Origin: Rubrivivax sp.
GTDB taxonomy: Bacteria; Pseudomonadota; Gammaproteobacteria; Burkholderiales; Burkholderiaceae_C
DNA length: 32,622 nucleotides
Direction of reading: 5' to 3'
Assembly (NCBI GenBank): GCA_025458805.1
Contig: JALORQ010000005.1
Span: forward strand, 1-32,622
Shown here: one piece after another, positions 14,544-29,943 of the stretch
How the letters are laid out: the number at the start of each line of letters is the position of its first letter
Numbering within the stretch: the first letter of the stretch is position 1
Notes under the pieces: model-generated
What the model saw: only the letters and a program-made list of their open reading frames with translations
Databases searched by the model: none
Told to the model about the DNA's origin: nothing
Program-made: the position numbers and the translations under genes

Positions 14544-15440
14544 ATGACGCGGCCACTCGATTGGGCGATCGACGGCGCGCACTGGCCCTGGCGCGACGCG
14601 AGCCGGTTCGTCGACGCCGGAGGCCTGCGCTGGCACGTGCAGCGCGGGATCCCGGGCGCGGGCCGTCCGCGGCTGCTGCTGGTCCACGGCACCGGCGCGT
14701 CGACGCACACGTGGCGCGCGCTGTGGCCGCTGGTCGCCACGCGTTTCGAGCCGCTGGCGATGGACCTGCCCGGCCACGCCTTCAGCTCGGCGCCGGCGCC
14801 GCAGCGGCTCGCGCTGCCGGCGATGGCGCAGTCGGTCGCAGCGCTCCTGGAGGCGCTCGACTTCCGGCCGCACCTCGCGCTCGGACACTCGGCCGGCGCG
14901 GCGATCGTGGCGCGCATGGCCCTCGACGGACAACTCGACGGCGCGGGCCTGGCCGCGATCAACGGCGCCTACCTGCCATACGGCGGCCTCGCGGCGCCGC
15001 TGTTCACGCCGCTGGCGCGCGCGCTGCACGGCGCCGGTTGGGTGGCGCGGCTCTTTGCGCGCCGCGCGGCCGATCCCGCCGTCGTGCGACGACTGGTCGA
15101 AGGCACCGGGTCGCGGCTCGACGGGGACGGCCTCGCGCTCTATGGACGGCTCATGACGAGCCCGGCGCACGCCGCCGCCGCGCTCGGCATGATGGCGCAC
15201 TGGGACCTGCGCGCACTGGCGCGCGAACTGCCCGCGCTGCCCGCGCCGCTGCACCTGCTGGTCGGCGCAGCAGACCGTGCGACGCCACCGCGGCAGGCGC
15301 GCCGCGTGGCAGCGTTGCGGCCGGGCAGCACGGTCGAGGTGGTGCCGCGCGCGGGCCACCTGGTGCACGAGGAGGATGCCGCGGCGGTCGCGCGTTGGCT
15401 GGTCGGTCTGCCCTGCGCGTCACCGGCCCCTCGGGTATAA
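14544..15440 (+). CDS. bchO: Alpha/beta hydrolase BchO (putative magnesium chelatase accessory protein)
   Basis: LLLVHGTGASTHTWRALWPLVA...GHSAGAAIVARMAL...; follows bchID. Confidence 0.92.
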   Translation: MTRPLDWAIDGAHWPWRDASRFVDAGGLRWHVQRGIPGAGRPRLLLVHGTGASTHTWRALWPLVATRFEPLAMDLPGHAFSSAPAPQRLALPAMAQSVAALLEALDFRPHLALGHSAGAAIVARMALDGQLDGAGLAAINGAYLPYGGLAAPLFTPLARALHGAGWVARLFARRAADPAVVRRLVEGTGSRLDGDGLALYGRLMTSPAHAAAALGMMAHWDLRALARELPALPAPLHLLVGAADRATPPRQARRVAALRPGSTVEVVPRAGHLVHEEDAAAVARWLVGLPCASPAPRV

Positions 15441-21434: not shown

Positions 21435-21968
21435 TCAGCCTGCGGGGGGAGCGTCTCCGGGCGCCGCGACGGCAGCCGGCGCGGCACCGGGGCCGCCTTC
21501 GGAGGACAGGGCGTCGGCGGGCGCTGCGGCGACCGGCGCGGCGAGCGCGCGTTCGACGAAGGCGTCGACCAGCCGGTCGGCGATGCGGTCGAACACCGGC
21601 CCGGCCGCATGCGTCGCGATGCGGCTCTCGAACTCGTAGTCGAGTGCGAACTCGACCTTGCAGGCGTCGGCCGCCAGCGGGCGCAAGCGCCACTCGCCGA
21701 AGAAGTGCCTGAACGGCCCCTGCTCGAGGTGGATCGCCATGTACTCGGGGCGCTGCTTGGGGTTGCGGGTGCGGAACCGCAGGTGCAGCCCGCGCCAGCG
21801 GATGTCGATGTCGGCGCTCACCACCGCGTCGTCGCGGGACACGATGGTCGCGTCATGGCACCAGGGCAGGAAGGCCGGGTAGTGTTCGGCGCCCTCGATG
21901 AGGTCGAACATCTGAGCTGCCGGGCGGCCGACGAGCGCGGTCCGGCGGATCGACCTCATCGCGCGCAT
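21435..21968 (-). CDS. SRPBCC/START-like protein, RatA/COQ10 family
   Basis: RSIRRTALVGRPAAQMFDLIEGAEHYPAFLPWCHDATIVSRDD... resembles RatA/COQ10; start 21968 or 21959. Confidence 0.85.
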   Translation of the reverse strand: MRAMRSIRRTALVGRPAAQMFDLIEGAEHYPAFLPWCHDATIVSRDDAVVSADIDIRWRGLHLRFRTRNPKQRPEYMAIHLEQGPFRHFFGEWRLRPLAADACKVEFALDYEFESRIATHAAGPVFDRIADRLVDAFVERALAAPVAAAPADALSSEGGPGAAPAAVAAPGDAPPAG

Positions 21969-21975
21969 GCGTCCA

Positions 21976-22965
21976 CTACTGCCGCGCCACGCGCCCTTCG
22001 GCGACGAGCGGGGCATAGAGCGCGAGGTCGGCCGCGACGCGATCGCGCAGGGCCTGGGGCGTCGACGGTGTCAGCTCGAAGCCGGCCTGCTCTGCGCGCT
22101 GGCGCACGCCTGCGTCGGCCAGCGCCTCGGAGACGTCCGATTGAAGCTGCTCGATCACCACGGCCGGGGTGCCCGCGACGGCGACCAGCGCGGCCCACGG
22201 ATGCATCTCGACGTCGGGGGCCCCGGCTTCGCGCAGCGTGGGGATGTCCGGGTGGGCCGGCAGACGCTGCCGCGCGGCCACCGCCAGCGGCCGCAGCCTG
22301 CCGCGCTGGTACAGGCCCGCGACGGTGTTCATGCTGAAGGCCGTGAAGTCGACCTCGCCGCTGGCCACTGCGGTGAGCATCGTCGCGGCCTCCTTGAACG
22401 GCACGTGCATCAGGTTCACCTGGGCGGCGCGTGCGAAGGTCTCGACCGCGACCTGGCTCGCATGACCGTTGCCCAGCGAGCCGTAGCTCACGCCGCGGCC
22501 GGGTGCGGCGCGCGCCGCCTGGAGCAGCTCGCCGATCGAGCGCCAGCGGCTGTCGCCGCCGACCCAGATCACGAAGGTCGCGCGGAACAGCAGCGTCAGC
22601 GGCACGAGGTCGCGCTGGGGGTCGTAAGGCAGCTGGGCATGCACAAGCGGGTTGACGGCCATCGTCGCGGTGTCGGCGACGAACAGCGTGTGCCCGTCCG
22701 GGAGCGTGCGGCGCACCTCGGAAAAGGCCACGATGCCCGATGCGCCGGGCTTGTTGTCGATGATCACCGGCTGCCCCCAGCGCTGCGCCAGGCGATCCCC
22801 GAGGCTGCGCGCGATGACGTCCGGTCCGACCCCCACCGAGTACGGCACGACGATGCGCACGGCGCGCTGCGGGAACGCGGCCGCGCGCGCCGCGGGCAGC
22901 CCGACCCCGGCGGCCAGTGCCGTGATCGCCGCGAGACCCCGGCGCCGCGAGAGCAGCCGGCTCAC
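21976..22965 (-). CDS. TctC/Bug family extracytoplasmic solute receptor; GTG start
   Basis: FPQRAVRIVVPYSVGVGPDVIARSLGDRLAQRWGQPVIIDNKPGASG...; GTGA overlap with menA stop. Confidence 0.88.
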   Translation of the reverse strand: MSRLLSRRRGLAAITALAAGVGLPAARAAAFPQRAVRIVVPYSVGVGPDVIARSLGDRLAQRWGQPVIIDNKPGASGIVAFSEVRRTLPDGHTLFVADTATMAVNPLVHAQLPYDPQRDLVPLTLLFRATFVIWVGGDSRWRSIGELLQAARAAPGRGVSYGSLGNGHASQVAVETFARAAQVNLMHVPFKEAATMLTAVASGEVDFTAFSMNTVAGLYQRGRLRPLAVAARQRLPAHPDIPTLREAGAPDVEMHPWAALVAVAGTPAVVIEQLQSDVSEALADAGVRQRAEQAGFELTPSTPQALRDRVAADLALYAPLVAEGRVARQ

Positions 22966-23906
22966 GTCGGAGCCCCGAGGCGCCCGCCGAGCGCGCCCAG
23001 CGACAGCAGCGCCGCGTACCAGAGCTCCAGGCGGAAGGTGCGAAACAGCAGCGCGTTGAAGGCGACGCCGGGCGGGCAGCGCAGGAAGTCGCGCCACAGC
23101 TGCACGGCCGAAGGGGCCAGCAGCAGCGGCAGCAGCAGGGCCGGCGACGCGGCGAGCCACGCCATCGCCGGAAGCAGCGCGAACGGCAGTGCCAGCAGCA
23201 GCGCGTAGAGACGTCGCGAGCCGGCCTCGCCGAAGGTCACGGCGAAAGTGCGCCGGCCGACGAGCCGGTCGTGCGCGATGTCGCGGTGGTTGTTGACCGC
23301 CAGCGCCGCGGCGGCGATCGCGCCGACGGCCACCGCGGCGAGCACGGTCACCGCGCCGACGCCGCCAGTCAGCACCCAGTCGGTGCCCGTGACCGCGACG
23401 AGTCCGAAGAACACGAAGACGGTCAGCTCGCCGAACGGCGAATATGCGATCGGCCGCGGGCCGCCCATGTAGGCGAGGGCGGCCAGCAGCGACGACACCC
23501 CGATCGCGAGCACCGGCCAGCCGCGATAGGCCACGAGGGCCAGCCCGAGCGCCGTGGCGACCAGCGAGCAGGCGACGATCGCCGCGCGCACGTGGCCGAC
23601 GCCCAGCCAACCGTTCGCCGTCGCGCGCGGCAACCCGGTGCGGGTGCCGCTCGAGTCGCCGCCGCGCACCGTGTAGCCGACGTCGTTCTGCATGTTCGTG
23701 ACGACCTGCATCAGCAGCGCCGCACCCAGGACCAGCAGCGCGGCGACGATGTCGACGCTGCCGGTGCGATCGAACCCGAGGGTCGCGCCGACCAGCACCG
23801 GGCTGAGCGCCACCAGCAGCGTGCGTGGTCGCACGGCGACGGCCCAGGCCTGCCACGAGCCCGCGCGTACCGAGCGGTCGCCGCCGACCGTTCGTCCGGC
23901 GTTCAT
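22962..23906 (-). CDS. menA: 1,4-dihydroxy-2-naphthoate polyprenyltransferase (UbiA superfamily)
   Basis: NMQNDVGYTVRGGDSSGTRTGLPRAT and NNHRDIAHDRLVGRRTFAVTFG motifs; multiple TM segments. Confidence 0.88.
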   Translation of the reverse strand: MNAGRTVGGDRSVRAGSWQAWAVAVRPRTLLVALSPVLVGATLGFDRTGSVDIVAALLVLGAALLMQVVTNMQNDVGYTVRGGDSSGTRTGLPRATANGWLGVGHVRAAIVACSLVATALGLALVAYRGWPVLAIGVSSLLAALAYMGGPRPIAYSPFGELTVFVFFGLVAVTGTDWVLTGGVGAVTVLAAVAVGAIAAAALAVNNHRDIAHDRLVGRRTFAVTFGEAGSRRLYALLLALPFALLPAMAWLAASPALLLPLLLAPSAVQLWRDFLRCPPGVAFNALLFRTFRLELWYAALLSLGALGGRLGAPT

Positions 23907-24105: not shown

Positions 24106-24123
24106 TGTCAGACACCATTGACA
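24106..24123. promoter_or_regulatory. PpsR/CrtJ-type site TGTCAGACACCATTGACA (TGT-N12-ACA)
   Basis: Exact TGT-N12-ACA spacing counted in the sequence; in the menA / HemN-like divergent region. Confidence 0.7.
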
Positions 24124-24204: not shown

Positions 24205-25578
24205 ATGAGCATGCTCAGCGGCGGACCGGCGGCCCTGTTCGAAGCCGCGTCGCCCGCCGAGGTGATGGTCCGATGCGCATGCGAGCGCGCGTTCGTGCAT
24301 GCGCGGCCGCCGCAGGCGGAAGCCGCGAGCGGGACGCAGGCCGTCGGGATGGTCGAGGACGCGCTCGCGAGGCTGTCGCATGCGCCCGAACTGCCCGTCG
24401 CGCTCGCGATCCGGCTGCCGTTCTGCGCGACGCATTGCCTGTTCTGCGAGCGCGACGTGCTGGCCGCGCAGCCGAGCGGCGTGATCGACGGCTACGCCGA
24501 GACGCTCGCCGGAGAGCTGGAGCTGCTGTCCTCGCGCGTCGGTCCGCGCAGACCGCTCGCGCAGGTGGTGCTCGGCGGCGGATGCGCCGACGAGCTGGGC
24601 GAGTCTGCGCTCGCCCGCCTGGCCTGCACGATCGAGCGGCGCTTCCGGGTGCTCGGAGAGACCGAGATGTCCGCCGAGTGCGACCCGCGGCGCGTCACGC
24701 GCGGCCAGCTGCAGCTGCTGCGCGGCCTGGGCTTCAGGCGCGTGACGTTCGGCGTCTTCGACCTCGACCCGGCCGTGCAGCGCTCGATCGGCCGCGTGCA
24801 GAGCGCGCGCCTGATCGACGACGCCTGTGCCGCGGCGCGCAGCAGCGGCCTGCGTACCGTCCAGCTCGACCTGATGACCGGGCTGCCCGGTCAGACGGCT
24901 TCCGGCTGGCGCGCGACGCTGGACCGCCTGCTGTCGATCGCGCCCGACCGCATCGGACTGCATCGCTATCGCCATCACCCGGAGCGGTTCGGCGGGCACG
25001 CGATGCTCGAGGCCGACGACGGTCCCGAAGACGGCGGCGAGTCGCTCGCCGCGCTGGCCGCCGAGCTGCTCCTCGATGCCGGCTACCGTTGGATCGGTGC
25101 CGGTCTGTTCGTGCTCGACGACGACGACCTCTTCGTCGCCGCGCAGCGCGGCAGACTGCGCTGCGGCGTGCTCTCGTACGGCGCCGGCGAGCCGGCGCCG
25201 GTGCTCGCCGTGGGCTCGGGCGCGCTGGGCGAGATCGGGGGCCTCCTGTACTGGAACATGCCGTCGATGCCGGCGTGGCGCTCGGCGGTGCAGCACGGTG
25301 GCCTGCCCGTCGCCGAGGCATGGCGTCCGGCCGCGCCGCAGTCGCGGCAGCGCGATGCCGTCGAGCATCTGCTGTGTCGTCTCGAGTTGCCGCGTGGCCT
25401 TTGCGAAGACGGGCTCGAAGCCGGCTGGCACCGGGTGGCGGGCCGCGCGACCGACGGCTTGGTGCGCGTGGTCGACGACCGGCTCGAACTCACGCCCAAG
25501 GGGCGGCTGTCGCTGCCGATGCTTTGCCGCGAGCTGGCGGTCTCGGCCGCCGTCGCCCGCGTCCAGGGGTTGCAATGA
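24205..25578 (+). CDS. HemN-like radical SAM protein (coproporphyrinogen III oxidase family)
   Basis: ALAIRLPFCATHCLFCERD (CX3CX2C), VVLGGG, SAECDPRRVT, FGVFDLDPAVQRSIGR, DLMTGLPGQT, HemN-like C-terminal region. Confidence 0.85.
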   Translation: MSMLSGGPAALFEAASPAEVMVRCACERAFVHARPPQAEAASGTQAVGMVEDALARLSHAPELPVALAIRLPFCATHCLFCERDVLAAQPSGVIDGYAETLAGELELLSSRVGPRRPLAQVVLGGGCADELGESALARLACTIERRFRVLGETEMSAECDPRRVTRGQLQLLRGLGFRRVTFGVFDLDPAVQRSIGRVQSARLIDDACAAARSSGLRTVQLDLMTGLPGQTASGWRATLDRLLSIAPDRIGLHRYRHHPERFGGHAMLEADDGPEDGGESLAALAAELLLDAGYRWIGAGLFVLDDDDLFVAAQRGRLRCGVLSYGAGEPAPVLAVGSGALGEIGGLLYWNMPSMPAWRSAVQHGGLPVAEAWRPAAPQSRQRDAVEHLLCRLELPRGLCEDGLEAGWHRVAGRATDGLVRVVDDRLELTPKGRLSLPMLCRELAVSAAVARVQGLQ

Positions 25579-26309
25579 CGGCCGGCAACCAAGACCTGCG
25601 CCGCGGCGGACCGTTGCTTCGGGCCGTCTGGCGGTTCGGCGCGGTCGTGCTCGGCGTGACGGCCATCGTGCTGTCCGCCACGGTGCCCGCGGCGGCAGCC
25701 GCCGAGGCCGCTGCGGCGTCGGCACCGGCCCCGACACACAGGCCGCTGCGGAGCCACGTGCCCGCGGAGCCTCCGCCGCCGACGGATCCCCAGGTGTTTG
25801 CCGGGTATCCGGGCGCGCCGGCCTTCACCGTGGTGCCGCGCAAGGGTGAACTGGTGTTCTATCCGTGCAGCAACTGCCACAAGGTGCTGCCGCTCAACCC
25901 GACCCCGCGCAAGCTCGTCGGCGCACCGCATCCGGCCGCGCTCGACCACGGCGCCGGACGCATGTGGTGTCTTGATTGCCACACCGGCACCGACCGCGAC
26001 GTCCTGCACTCGATCGGCGGCGAGCGGATCGACTTCGATCAGTCCGACCGGCTGTGCGGGCAGTGCCACGGCACGCGCCATCGCGACTGGTTCTTCGGCG
26101 GCCATGGCAAGCGGGTGGCACAGTGGCAGGGCGAGCGGCGGATCTACTCGTGCACGCACTGCCACGACCCCCACAGTCCGACGCTGAAGCCCCGCCAGGC
26201 CAGCAAGCCGCCCCCGGTGCGCGCCGGGCTGGAGCCGATGCCACGGCACGAGCGCCATGCCGATCCGCTGCAGCGACTCGTCGGCCCGGCAGCAGGAGGG
26301 ACGCGATGA
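25575..26309 (+). CDS. Tetraheme c-type cytochrome, N-terminal signal/anchor
   Basis: Hydrophobic N-terminal segment; four CxxCH motifs (CSNCH, CLDCH, CGQCH, CTHCH); ATGA overlap with HemN-like gene. Confidence 0.88.
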   Translation: MTAGNQDLRRGGPLLRAVWRFGAVVLGVTAIVLSATVPAAAAAEAAAASAPAPTHRPLRSHVPAEPPPPTDPQVFAGYPGAPAFTVVPRKGELVFYPCSNCHKVLPLNPTPRKLVGAPHPAALDHGAGRMWCLDCHTGTDRDVLHSIGGERIDFDQSDRLCGQCHGTRHRDWFFGGHGKRVAQWQGERRIYSCTHCHDPHSPTLKPRQASKPPPVRAGLEPMPRHERHADPLQRLVGPAAGGTR

Positions 26310-27304
26310 CGCAACACGACGAGTCGCCGGCGGCCGCGGGCGCCGAGACGGGCGCGCCGAAGGCCGCAGACGGCGGCGGCTTCGGCGCCTACCGGCGTCG
26401 CTTCCTTTCCGGCCTCGCCAAGGTCGGCGGTGCGATGGCCGCCGGCGGCGCCGCGGCGCAGGGGGCCTTCGGCGGCGCGACGCTGCAGGACGCGCTGGGC
26501 GGCTTCTTCCAGGACCACTACCAGCGCATGACGGCCGACGAGATCGCTTCGGCGCTCGAACGCATCGAGCGCCGTGCGCAGCGCAAGTTCGGCGTCGAGA
26601 TCGACTGCAAGAACACGCCGCCGTTGCCGAACACGGTGTTCGGCTACGCGATCAACATCAGCAAGTGCAAGGGCTACCGCGACTGCGTCGAGGCCTGCGT
26701 GCGCGAGAACAACCTCGGCCGCGACTCGCAGATGCAGTACATCCGCGTGCTCGAGATCCCGCGCGGCACGATGGAGCTCGAGCACGGCGACCACTACTAC
26801 GAAGGCGCGAGCGTTCCCGCGCCCGGCAAGTTCTACCTGCCGGTGCAGTGCATGCAGTGCGACAACCCGCCGTGCGTCAAGGCCTGCCCGACGAAGGCGA
26901 CGTGGAAGGAGCCCGACGGCATCGTCGTCGTCGACTACGACTGGTGCATCGGCTGCCGCTACTGCATGACGGCGTGCCCGTACTGGGCGCGGCACTTCAA
27001 CTGGACCGAGCCGCAGATCCCTGCTGCCGAGCTCAACCCGAACACGCACTACCTCGGCAACCGTCCGCGGCCCAAGGGCGTGGTCGAGAAGTGCCACTTC
27101 TGCACCCAGCGCACGCGCGAAGGCCGCCAGCCGGCCTGCCAGGAGGCCTGTCCGACCGGCGCCCGCATCTTCGGCAACCTGCTGGACCCGTCGAGCGAGA
27201 TCCGCTGGGTGCTCGCCAACAAGACCGTCTTCCGGCTCAAGGAGGACCTGGGCACCGAGCCCAAGTTCTGGTACTTCACCGACGACCGCTCGACCGCGCC
27301 ATGA
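26306..27304 (+). CDS. Tat-exported 4Fe-4S ferredoxin-type subunit (NrfC/HybA/DsrO-like)
   Basis: YRRRFLSGLAKVGG Tat-like leader; four Cys clusters incl. CMQCDNPPCVKACP, CIGCRYCMTACPYW, CHFCTQRTREGRQPACQEACP; ATGA overlap. Confidence 0.9.
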   Translation: MTQHDESPAAAGAETGAPKAADGGGFGAYRRRFLSGLAKVGGAMAAGGAAAQGAFGGATLQDALGGFFQDHYQRMTADEIASALERIERRAQRKFGVEIDCKNTPPLPNTVFGYAINISKCKGYRDCVEACVRENNLGRDSQMQYIRVLEIPRGTMELEHGDHYYEGASVPAPGKFYLPVQCMQCDNPPCVKACPTKATWKEPDGIVVVDYDWCIGCRYCMTACPYWARHFNWTEPQIPAAELNPNTHYLGNRPRPKGVVEKCHFCTQRTREGRQPACQEACPTGARIFGNLLDPSSEIRWVLANKTVFRLKEDLGTEPKFWYFTDDRSTAP

Positions 27305-28521
27305 ACCTCGCCCTCCGTTTCGTCGCCGACGGCCTGCGCGAGATGTTCCGCGGCGGGCGCGCCTACTGGCAGTGGCTGGCGCTGCTCGCCGCGCTGATGG
27401 CCGTGGGCGCCTTCGCCTACCTGGGCCAGCTCGACCGGGGCCTCGTGGTCACGGGGCTGAGCGACCAGGTGTCGTGGGGCTTCTACATCGCCAACTTCGC
27501 CTTCCTGGTCGGCATCGCGGCGGCGGCGGTGCTGCTCGTCATCCCCGCCTACCTGTTCCACCGGCAGGACGTGAAGGCGGTGGTGCTGCTCGGCGAAGGG
27601 CTCGCGGTGGCCGCGGTGCTGTGCGCGATGCTCTTCGTGACGGTCGACCTCGGCCGGCCCGAGCGCGTGTGGCACATGTTCCCGGTGGTCGGCCGTTTCA
27701 ACTGGCCGATGTCGCTGCTGGCCTGGGACGTCGTCGTGCTCAGCGGATACCTGGCGCTCAACCTGTCGCTGCCGCTCTACGTGCATTGGTGCCACTGGCG
27801 CGGGCGGCAGCCCGAGCTACGGCTGTACTTCCCGGTGGTCGTGATCGCGATGTTCTGGGCGATCTCGATCCATACCGTCACCGCGTTCCTCTTCTCGGCG
27901 AACGCGGGGCGCCCGTTCTGGCACACCTCGCTGCTCGGGCCCCGCTTCATCGCGTCGGCGTTCGTGTCCGGGCCGGCGTTGATCATCCTGCTGCTGCAGG
28001 TGATCCGCCGCACGACGCGCTATCCGGTGCAGCAGAGCGTCATCGACACCTTGGCGGTCGTGATGACGGTGGCGCTGCAGATCAGCCTGTTCTTCGTCGT
28101 CGCCGAGCTGTTCACCGACTTCTACAACGAGACGAGTCACGCGGGATCGATCCGGTACCTGTTCTTCGGGCTCGACGGGCTGGGCAGCCTGCGCGGCTGG
28201 ATCTGGAGCGCGCTGGCGCTGAACGTCGTGGCGGTCGTGATCCTCTCGGTCAACCCGTGGCGGCGCCAGATGCCGCTGCTCAACGTCGCCTGCGTGCTCG
28301 CGTTCGTCGGGATCTGGATCGAGAAGGGCATGGGGCTGGTCGTGCCCGGCTTCATCCCGACGCCGCTCGGCGAGGTCTTCGAGTACTCGCCGAGCTGGCG
28401 CGAACTGGCGGTGGCCATCGGCATCTGGGCCTTCGGTGCCCTCGTGTTCACTCTGCTCGCCAAGGCCAGCATCGCGATCGAAACCGGGCGCGTGCGCGAG
28501 GCCGGCCCGGCGCCGGCCTGA
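27301..28521 (+). CDS. NrfD/PsrC-type polytopic quinone-interacting membrane subunit
   Basis: Multiple TM segments, SWGFYIANFAFLVGIAAAAVLLVIPAYLF, VDLGRPERVWHMF; ATGA overlap with the FeS gene. Confidence 0.92.
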   Translation: MNLALRFVADGLREMFRGGRAYWQWLALLAALMAVGAFAYLGQLDRGLVVTGLSDQVSWGFYIANFAFLVGIAAAAVLLVIPAYLFHRQDVKAVVLLGEGLAVAAVLCAMLFVTVDLGRPERVWHMFPVVGRFNWPMSLLAWDVVVLSGYLALNLSLPLYVHWCHWRGRQPELRLYFPVVVIAMFWAISIHTVTAFLFSANAGRPFWHTSLLGPRFIASAFVSGPALIILLLQVIRRTTRYPVQQSVIDTLAVVMTVALQISLFFVVAELFTDFYNETSHAGSIRYLFFGLDGLGSLRGWIWSALALNVVAVVILSVNPWRRQMPLLNVACVLAFVGIWIEKGMGLVVPGFIPTPLGEVFEYSPSWRELAVAIGIWAFGALVFTLLAKASIAIETGRVREAGPAPA

Positions 28522-28559: not shown

Positions 28560-28898
28560 TCAACCGCCCGTCTTGAGCAGCCAGGTCACGACCGTGTTGA
28601 GGTCGGCGTCGGACAGCCTGGACGCGTCGGTCGCCGGCATCGGGACCTTGCCCCACTCCCCGGTGCTTCCCTTGCGCACGCGCCCGGACAGCAGGGCCAC
28701 CGCGTCGGCCCGGCCCTTGTAGCGCGCCGCGATCTCCTTGTACGAGGGGCCGAGGAGCTTCTTGTCGACGGCGTGGCAGGCGCTGCAGCCAGCGCGCGTG
28801 GCGATCGCCTCCGAGGCACGTGCCGCGGTCGTCGCCGCCAGCATCAGCGCGGCCACCAGCAGGGGCGACATCAGTTGCATCTTCAGTGGGTCGTCCAT
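28560..28898 (-). CDS. Small monoheme class I cytochrome c (c551/c8-like)
   Basis: Signal peptide, AGCSACHAVDKKLLGPSYKEIAARYKG, PMPATDASRLSDADLNTVVTWLL (distal Met). Confidence 0.9.
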   Translation of the reverse strand: MDDPLKMQLMSPLLVAALMLAATTAARASEAIATRAGCSACHAVDKKLLGPSYKEIAARYKGRADAVALLSGRVRKGSTGEWGKVPMPATDASRLSDADLNTVVTWLLKTGG

Positions 28899-28944: not shown

Positions 28945-28962
28945 TGTCAGAATGCATTGACA
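28945..28962. promoter_or_regulatory. PpsR/CrtJ-type site TGTCAGAATGCATTGACA (TGT-N12-ACA)
   Basis: Exact spacing counted; in the divergent cytochrome c / crtE intergenic region. Confidence 0.75.
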
Positions 28963-29025
28963 CTCATGGTGACTCGATGACATGACACTCGTCGATCATA
29001 AGCCCCACCGGACCCGGAGCGCCAG

Positions 29026-29943
29026 ATGAACCCCATGCCTCGCATCGAGCAAGCCCTGCAGGCCGCGATCGACCTCGGCGAGGCGCCCGGCTGCCCGCCA
29101 CGGCTGGCCGCGGCCATGCGGCACGCCGTCTTCCCCGGGGGCGCCCGCATCCGCCCGCAGCTCTGTCTGGCCGTGGCGCGGGCATGCGGCGACAGCGATC
29201 CGGCACTGGCCGACGGGGCTGCTGCCGCGATCGAACTGCTGCACTGCGCATCGCTGGTGCACGACGACCTGCCTTGCTTCGACGATGCCGCGATGCGCCG
29301 TGGCCGCCCGTCGGTGCACGCCGCCTTCGGCGAGCGGCTGGCGGTGCTGGCCGGTGACGGTCTCATCGTTCTCGCGTTCCAGGCCCTTGGCGTTGCCGCT
29401 GCACGGTCGCCGCAGCGCCTGCCGCGCGTGATGGCCAGCGTGGCGCGTGGCGTCGGCATGCCGTTCGGCATCGTCGCCGGGCAGGCCTGGGAGTGCGAGC
29501 CGCGCGTCGCCCTCTCGGACTACCAGCGAGCGAAGACCGGTGCGCTGTTCGCCGCCGCGACGGCTGCCGGCGCGGAAGCCGCGGGCGTGGACGGCGAGCG
29601 CTGGCGGGCCCTCGGCGAGTGGCTCGGCGAGGCCTACCAGGTGGCCGACGACATCCGCGACGTGATGGCCGATCCCGCCGTCCTGGGCAAGCCGGTCGGG
29701 CAGGATCGTGCACTGGGCCGCCCGAGCTCGGCGATCGAGCAGGGGCTGTTGGGCGCCATCGAGCATTTCGAGCGCCTGGTGGCCTGCGCCATCGAGGCGG
29801 TGCCGCCATGCCGCGGTGCCTCCGGGCTGCGTGCGCTGGTGCGCAGCGAGTCGGAGCGCCTGGTGCCGAGGGCCTGGTGCGAGCGCGTGCAGCGTGGCGA
29901 GGTCGCCGAGCCGTCTGCACTGACGCCGACGACCGCGGGCTGA
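29026..29943 (+). CDS. crtE: Geranylgeranyl diphosphate synthase (polyprenyl synthetase)
   Basis: PGGARIRPQLCLAVARA, LVHDDLPCFDDAAMRRGRPSVHAAFGE, DDIRDVMAD; upstream of crtF. Confidence 0.93.
   Translation: MNPMPRIEQALQAAIDLGEAPGCPPRLAAAMRHAVFPGGARIRPQLCLAVARACGDSDPALADGAAAAIELLHCASLVHDDLPCFDDAAMRRGRPSVHAAFGERLAVLAGDGLIVLAFQALGVAAARSPQRLPRVMASVARGVGMPFGIVAGQAWECEPRVALSDYQRAKTGALFAAATAAGAEAAGVDGERWRALGEWLGEAYQVADDIRDVMADPAVLGKPVGQDRALGRPSSAIEQGLLGAIEHFERLVACAIEAVPPCRGASGLRALVRSESERLVPRAWCERVQRGEVAEPSALTPTTAG

What the first reader, a model, noticed from the sequence alone, without database searches (positions are those of the whole stretch)
24205..28521. Orphan NrfBCD/DsrJOP-like electron transfer module fused by ATGA overlaps to a HemN-like radical SAM gene, inside the photosynthesis region
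Four genes (HemN-like, tetraheme cytochrome c, Tat-exported 4-cluster ferredoxin, NrfD-type membrane protein) each overlap the next by ATGA, so they are probably translationally coupled. The last three match the periplasmic cytochrome + FeS + NrfD plan of NrfBCD and DsrJOP, which link the quinone pool to periplasmic redox partners. No catalytic subunit (NrfA, molybdopterin enzyme, octaheme reductase) is present. With menA divergent on one side and a small cytochrome c plus crtE on the other, I infer a light/anaerobiosis-regulated quinol:cytochrome c oxidoreductase that could feed the reaction centre donors (bc1-like) or run in reverse.
Basis: partly seen in the sequence, partly recalled or inferred. 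Interest (0 to 1): 0.85.

Follow-up and report, generated by a model that had tools for sequence, protein, structure and literature searches.

The report
Quinol-to-cytochrome module in photosynthesis cluster
Some purple photosynthetic bacteria, including the laboratory species Rubrivivax gelatinosus, carry among their photosynthesis genes a small uncharacterised membrane complex that probably passes electrons from the quinone pool to a small periplasmic cytochrome of the type that feeds the photosynthetic reaction centre, alongside the textbook bc1 complex.

Summary
In detail: HemN-like, tetraheme cytochrome, Tat ferredoxin and NrfD-type genes overlap by ATGA, inside a photosynthesis gene cluster. 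The last three form a widespread module (tetraheme cytochrome, DsrO-like FeS protein, DsrP-like quinol subunit) that elsewhere sits beside NapA, octaheme or MtrC/OmcA-like partners. The window copy lies in a clade of beta- and gammaproteobacteria. Nine of its 11 members carry reaction-centre genes, a tenth has bchC on the same contig, and one (G155) has neither. Ten of 11 have a divergent gene for a cytochrome c8 (c551 family) beside the module; no other fetched module has one. PpsR/CrtJ-type sites precede the operon in the window, two Rubrivivax species and Piscinibacter MQ-18. Quinone-site residues are conserved. The complex coexists with bc1 and occurs in only 2 of 25 phototrophs of the genus, so it supplements bc1. 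HemN-like is a passenger: absent beside gamma modules, a remnant in MQ-18. Best explanation: a stand-alone quinol:cytochrome c8 oxidoreductase giving a second, probably bc1-inhibitor-insensitive, route from the quinone pool to the reaction-centre donors. Direction and acceptor are inferred. No description was found in the held literature; NCBI names relatives 'DsrMKJOP subunit DsrP', which does not fit.

The parts
24106..24123 (.). PpsR/CrtJ-type site TGTCAGACACCATTGACA, 99 bp upstream of the operon
   Evidence: TGT-N12-ACA site also in the same intergenic region of R. gelatinosus, R. benzoatilyticus and Piscinibacter MQ-18; by chance in 2% of shuffles of this 298-bp region
24205..25578 (+). 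HemN-like radical SAM protein, a divergent paralogue (CxxxCxxC kept, HemN YxHIPFC Tyr/His lost); probably a passenger of the photosynthesis cluster
   Evidence: (TIGR00538 201 bits against cut-off 325)
25575..26309 (+). exported tetraheme cytochrome c (Cytochrome_C7-like), three invariant distal His
   Evidence: ATGA overlap with the gene before
26306..27304 (+). Tat-exported DsrO-like FeS protein, four cluster motifs; motif I is CxxYxxCxxxC (one Cys replaced by Tyr)
   Evidence: (DsrO 198.2 against cut-off 200); ATGA overlap
27301..28521 (+). NrfD-family (DsrP-like) integral membrane quinol subunit; D116, S138, K342 match the proposed quinone and proton-gate residues
   Evidence: (DsrP 410 bits, cut-off 350)
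28560..28898 (-). exported monoheme cytochrome c551/c8, convergent with nrfD; conserved partner in 10 of 11 clade members
28945..28962 (.). PpsR/CrtJ-type site between cytochrome c8 and crtE, with a second imperfect palindrome 7 bp away (28970-28987)
22962..23906 (-). menA (context, divergent from the operon; conserved next to it in Rubrivivax and Piscinibacter)
29026..29943 (+). crtE (context)

Best explanation
The three genes 25575-28521 encode a stand-alone membrane complex. Quinol is oxidised at the periplasmic-side site of the NrfD/DsrP-like subunit. Electrons pass through the clusters of the Tat-exported FeS protein to the tetraheme cytochrome and on to the neighbouring cytochrome c8, which reduces the reaction-centre cytochrome (PufC) in the light. 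It is thus a minimal ActABC-like quinol:cytochrome c oxidoreductase working beside bc1, probably relieving an over-reduced quinone pool and keeping cyclic flow going. In the betaproteobacteria it was brought under PpsR control in the photosynthesis cluster. Shown here: gene layout, family kinship, conserved quinone-site residues, the clade, the c8 neighbour, the pufLM association and PpsR-type sites. Inferred: complex formation, direction, c8 as acceptor, supply to the reaction centre, proton pumping. The HemN-like gene is probably co-transcribed but not part of the machine.
For: Clade of 11 NrfD sequences with support 94/97 (33-row careful tree, near-identical R. gelatinosus DSM 1709 left out of that tree; SH-aLRT 99 in the 100-row quick tree without G155). 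Whole-genome pufLM in 9 of these, bchC on the contig of L043; of 15 relatives outside the clade 3 have pufLM (Fisher p 0.004). A c8 gene beside the module in 10 of 11 clade members and in no other fetched module. High- and low-potential cytochrome c8 have been shown to donate to the reaction-centre cytochrome of R. gelatinosus (stated in PMC9395421). PpsR-type sites; PpsR binds TGT-N12-ACA in R. gelatinosus (PMC4452267). Quinone-site Asp/Ser and gate Lys equivalents. The only NrfD-family gene in R. gelatinosus DSM 1709 and R. benzoatilyticus JA2. Relatives place the same module beside NapA, octaheme or MtrC-type partners, so it looks like a quinol-side adapter. Nearest solved NrfD structures are ActC of ACIII, and in Roseiflexus ACIII serves cyclic photosynthetic electron transfer (PMC8552683).
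Against: bc1 (cytochrome c1) is present in nearly all carriers. Only 2 of 25 phototrophs of the genus have the module. One clade member (G155, L174) has neither pufLM nor BchY and no c8 on its 4-kb contig. Gamma members keep the module on a contig other than the one with pufLM. A single clade of all pufLM carriers is rejected (AU p 0.014). No biochemical data; c8 can also serve nitrite reduction.
Confidence: 0.5

Rival explanations
1. The same complex runs in reverse: periplasmic cytochrome (c8 or the tetraheme protein) reduces quinone, as in QrcABCD, letting external or periplasmic donors feed the quinone pool in the light.
For: NrfD complexes such as Qrc reduce quinone from periplasmic cytochrome (established knowledge of Qrc); sister lineages in the tree sit beside MtrC/OmcA-like and other multiheme genes that could work either way.
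Against: In the phototroph clade the only conserved partner is c8, of the family that reduces the reaction centre, which would drain electrons from c8; no donor-oxidising enzyme is adjacent.
Confidence: 0.15
2. Quinol to c8 electron transfer is right, but the terminal acceptor is dark anaerobic or microaerobic (nitrite reductase, peroxidase, oxidase); the photosynthesis cluster offers only anaerobic (PpsR) regulation.
For: R. gelatinosus has a c8-family gene beside an apparent nirS cluster (identified by order and heme count), and a c8 of the nitrite pathway also donates to the reaction centre (title of Nagashima 2011, in the reference list read). One clade member lacks pufLM.
Against: The apparent nir gene set of R. 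gelatinosus has its own c8 elsewhere. The clade is strongly enriched for pufLM, and the operon carries PpsR-type sites in four species.
Confidence: 0.2
3. A remnant or variant of DsrMKJOP serving sulfur oxidation.
For: NCBIfam DsrP above cut-off, DsrO just below; relatives are annotated as DsrMKJOP subunits.
Against: No DsrM/DsrK/DsrL genes beside it. The Dsr-type complex of a genus member (G001, L039) has an NrfD only 31% identical. DsrP1 and DsrP2 each form separate, fully supported groups. The cytochrome is not DsrJ.
Confidence: 0.05
4. The four-gene operon is one functional unit in which the HemN-like radical SAM protein matures the tetraheme cytochrome or a tetrapyrrole cofactor of the complex.
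For: ATGA coupling in the window and conserved gene order in two Rubrivivax species.
Against: The HemN-like gene is a truncated remnant in Piscinibacter MQ-18 while the module is intact, none was found beside the gamma modules, and in the Halieaceae member a HemN-like gene lies on the pufLM contig away from the module.
Confidence: 0.07

Closest known systems
DsrMKJOP, subunits DsrO and DsrP
   Same: FeS and NrfD subunits score at or near the DsrO and DsrP equivalog cut-offs; order cytochrome-FeS-NrfD as in DsrJOP; conserved Asp, Ser and Lys as in DsrP1
   Different: no DsrM or DsrK; tetraheme C7-like cytochrome instead of triheme DsrJ; falls outside the DsrP1 and DsrP2 groups of the tree
Alternative complex III (ActABC core)
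   Same: multiheme cytochrome + FeS + NrfD order; ActC is the nearest solved NrfD relative; a quinol:cytochrome c function and, in Roseiflexus, a role in cyclic photosynthetic flow (PMC8552683)
   Different: no molybdopterin-like half of ActB and no ActD, ActE or ActF genes; the ActC/ActF-like rows form a separate group in the tree; coexists with bc1
NrfBCD of cytochrome c nitrite reductase
   Same: same three-part plan (cytochrome, FeS protein, NrfD)
   Different: no NrfA adjacent; the FeS protein scores 120.6 bits on the NrfC model against a cut-off of 377.6; the NrfD subunit matches DsrP, QrcD and TtrC models
Same module beside NapA in Bacteroidota and others (for example Flammeovirga kamogawensis p1)
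   Same: homologous cytochrome-FeS-NrfD, NrfD 49% identical
   Different: operon contains NapD, a NapA-like enzyme and a cytochrome c3-family gene; no c8, no photosynthesis genes
Cytochrome bc1 complex
   Same: proposed overall reaction (quinol to periplasmic cytochrome c)
   Different: unrelated proteins; bc1 is present as well in nearly all carriers

Membership tests
DsrMKJOP | DsrP-type membrane subunit | tested here: met
   NF045798 410 bits against cut-off 350, but this model also passes NapA-linked and octaheme-linked modules
DsrMKJOP | DsrM and DsrK subunits in the operon | tested here: not met
   neighbourhoods of the window and Rubrivivax loci
DsrMKJOP | triheme DsrJ | tested here: not met
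   four CXXCH, Cytochrome_C7-like, alignable with module cytochromes
DsrMKJOP | falls in the DsrP1 or DsrP2 group of the NrfD tree | tested here: not met
   both groups are monophyletic (100) without the window
NrfABCD | NrfA catalytic subunit linked | tested here: not met
   no such gene in the neighbourhoods; only 39% of the R. gelatinosus genome was scanned for multiheme frames
NrfABCD | NrfC/NrfD-type subunits | tested here: not met
   NrfC model far below its cut-off
Alternative complex III | ActB with molybdopterin-enzyme-like half, plus ActD and ActF | tested here: not met
   FeS protein is 332 aa; no act genes near
Alternative complex III | quinol:cytochrome c oxidoreductase activity | not testable with these tools
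   needs a purified complex
HemN (coproporphyrinogen dehydrogenase) | equivalog score and YxHIPFC signature | tested here: not met
   201 bits against cut-off 325; Tyr and His replaced; a HemN above cut-off lies elsewhere in R. gelatinosus (548 bits)
Cytochrome c8/c551 | c551-family sequence and single heme | tested here: met
   phmmer to Pseudomonas c551 3.8e-21 and Nitrosomonas c552
PpsR/CrtJ regulon | TGT-N12-ACA operator upstream | tested here: met
   window and three further species; binding itself not tested

The most novel reading that the evidence does not exclude
A second, bc1-independent quinol:cytochrome c8 oxidoreductase of purple bacterial photosynthesis: a minimal ACIII-like complex under PpsR control that feeds the reaction centre from the quinone pool.
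Probability: 0.4. Interest if true: 0.8.

Novelty: new variant of a known kind. Interest (0 to 1): 0.6.

Why it matters
Cyclic electron flow in purple bacteria is taught as reaction centre plus bc1. A stand-alone NrfD-type quinol:cytochrome c8 complex under photosynthetic control would add a second quinol-oxidising branch, could explain re-reduction of cytochromes when bc1 is blocked, and would link anaerobic-respiration adapters with photosynthesis. It sits in R. gelatinosus, in which gene deletions have been made (PMC9395421, PMC4452267), so it can be tested directly. It also shows that the present NCBI DsrP model labels other complexes as sulfate-reduction proteins.

Tried and rejected
A bc1-replacement reading was rejected: cytochrome c1 is present in 27 of 32 genomes searched; of the pufLM-bearing clade members only the 76%-complete G000 lacks a hit. 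Phototrophy linkage of the 45%-identical paralogue (type B, FeS-NrfD-cytochrome-hemerythrin in the genus) was rejected: 1 of 8 carriers in an order-wide sample has pufLM, the base rate. The idea that Cys to Tyr in FeS motif I marks the phototroph clade was rejected: it is shared by most proteobacterial and Bacteroidota modules. A fold search with the AlphaFold model of the cytochrome (pLDDT 69) gave nothing. Assigning this c8 to the low-potential c8 by elimination failed: 39% of the R. gelatinosus genome already holds at least two other close c8-family genes. One clade for all pufLM carriers is rejected. Paper searches for NrfD with purple bacteria or Rubrivivax found no description of this complex.

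Full report
Observation. The four frames and the three ATGA overlaps are in the sequence, with families as follows: a HemN-like radical SAM protein (201 bits on TIGR00538, cut-off 325), a tetraheme Cytochrome_C7-like protein, a DsrO-like FeS protein (198.2 against cut-off 200) and a DsrP-like NrfD protein (410 against 350). The cytochrome has an export signal and the FeS protein an RRRFL Tat motif. The window is a photosynthesis gene cluster: bchI, bchD, crtE, crtF and bchC lie in it, and bchYZ-pufBALMC continue on contig C192 of the same 76%-complete genome. R. gelatinosus DSM 1709 and R. benzoatilyticus JA2 have the same genes in the same order.

What the module is. A scan of species genomes gave 80 loci. 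In them the set cytochrome-FeS-NrfD recurs in many phyla, with partners that differ by lineage: NapD, a NapA-like enzyme and a NapB-like cytochrome in Bacteroidota, Gemmatimonadota, SAR324 and Chloroflexota; octaheme cytochromes in Planctomycetota, Verrucomicrobiota and others; NapC-like and MtrC/OmcA-like multiheme proteins in several gammaproteobacteria and Verrucomicrobiota. In Flammeovirga kamogawensis the annotated operon is NapD, molybdopterin oxidoreductase, cytochrome c3, hypothetical, 4Fe-4S, 'DsrMKJOP subunit DsrP'. The constant part therefore looks like a quinol-side adapter. A published NrfD survey lists DsrP1 and DsrP2 but no such stand-alone group (PMC8076601).

The phototroph clade. 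In a 100-row NrfD tree the window falls with Rubrivivax, Piscinibacter MQ-18, an uncultured betaproteobacterium, a Burkholderiaceae MAG and Halieaceae, Woeseiaceae and Lysobacterales MAGs (SH-aLRT 99). In a 33-row careful tree the clade has 94/97 support and also takes in G155. Whole-genome searches found pufLM in 9 of the 11 members; L043 has bchC on its own contig; G155 has neither pufLM nor BchY. Outside the clade 3 of 15 tested relatives have pufLM (Fisher p 0.004; rows share ancestry, so this overstates the independence). Ten of the 11 have a gene of the c551/c8 family beside the module, on the opposite strand; in L044 one gene lies between. No other fetched module has it. The window protein matches Pseudomonas c551 at 3.8e-21 and Nitrosomonas c552. 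PMC9395421 states that high- and low-potential cytochrome c8 donate to the reaction-centre cytochrome of R. gelatinosus.

Regulation. TGT-N12-ACA palindromes, the PpsR target shown for R. gelatinosus (PMC4452267), lie before the operon in the window (24106), in R. gelatinosus, R. benzoatilyticus and Piscinibacter MQ-18, and between c8 and crtE in the window and Rubrivivax. In shuffles of the 298-bp window region such a site appeared in 2%. The gamma members lack such sites before the cytochrome or c8 gene, and where checked their module is on a contig other than the one with pufLM. Coupling to c8 is therefore older or wider than the move into the photosynthesis cluster (inference).

Competence. 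The Asp and Ser proposed for quinone binding and the Lys at the proposed proton gate in DsrP1 (PMC8076601) are D116, S138 and K342 here; S138 and K342 are invariant in 15 sequences. The cytochrome keeps three invariant distal His. The FeS protein has CxxYxxCxxxC in motif I, like most proteobacterial and Bacteroidota modules but not types with octaheme partners; a [3Fe-4S] cluster there is possible (inference).

HemN-like gene. It lacks the Tyr and His of the HemN signature. R. gelatinosus has a HemN above the curated cut-off elsewhere (548 bits). In Piscinibacter MQ-18 the copy is a truncated remnant before an intact module. No HemN-like gene was found beside the module in gamma members, and in the Halieaceae member a HemN-like gene lies on the pufLM contig instead. 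It appears to belong to the photosynthesis cluster rather than to the electron-transfer machine.

Limits. bc1 is present in nearly all carriers, so the complex is an addition. In the genus 25 of 37 genomes have pufLM but only 2 carry this copy. A 45%-identical paralogue with a hemerythrin gene is not phototrophy-linked. R. gelatinosus and R. benzoatilyticus have no second NrfD-family gene, but a multiheme partner elsewhere was scanned for in only 2.0 of 5.1 Mb, and a molybdenum partner not at all. That stretch holds two further close c8-family genes, one beside an apparent nirS cluster (gene identities there are by order and heme count, not by a family search). Direction, acceptor, complex formation and energy coupling are inferred. 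My confidence is 0.9 that the module is a real, phototrophy-associated clade and 0.5 that it is a quinol:c8 oxidoreductase feeding the reaction centre.

Noticed in passing
L030-L037, L040, L024: A paralogous module FeS-NrfD-tetraheme cytochrome-142-aa unknown-hemerythrin in the genus (and NrfD relatives in other Burkholderiales), not linked to phototrophy; no catalytic subunit adjacent either.
   Followed up: partly
L068, L072, L075, L077, L080, L081, L109, L189: NapD and a NapA-like enzyme next to cytochrome-FeS-NrfD in Bacteroidota, Gemmatimonadota, SAR324 and Chloroflexota; suggests that this module supplies quinol electrons to NapA there.
   Followed up: partly
L083, L085, L089, L091, L094, L098, L103-L108: The same module beside octaheme (OTR/ONR-like) cytochromes or porin and decaheme conduits in Verrucomicrobiota, Planctomycetota and others.
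   Followed up: no
tree: DsrP1 of sulfate reducers nests inside the cytochrome-FeS-NrfD module family (SH-aLRT 92-97, with a long-branch warning); DsrMKJOP may have been built on such a module.
   Followed up: no
NCBIfam NF045798: The DsrP equivalog cut-off of 350 bits admits many modules that are not DsrMKJOP, so public annotation of them as sulfate-reduction proteins is misleading; the sulfate-reducer-type DsrP1 group scored 450-503, module members mostly 356-431.
   Followed up: partly
L042:7736-8377: Piscinibacter MQ-18 keeps only a truncated HemN-like remnant before an intact module.
   Followed up: yes
L183 / L185 (G295:C222): NrfD gene of a related module cut at residue about 150, with a transposase-like frame just upstream.
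   Followed up: no
L220:5988-6296 and 14823-15197: Two further c8-family genes in R. gelatinosus, one in an apparent nirS cluster; at least three c8-family genes in this genome.
   Followed up: partly
window 21435-22016 and 21976-22965 (-): RatA-like SRPBCC gene and a Bug-type solute-binding gene lie next to menA; the RatA-like gene and menA stay together in Rubrivivax and Piscinibacter.
   Followed up: no
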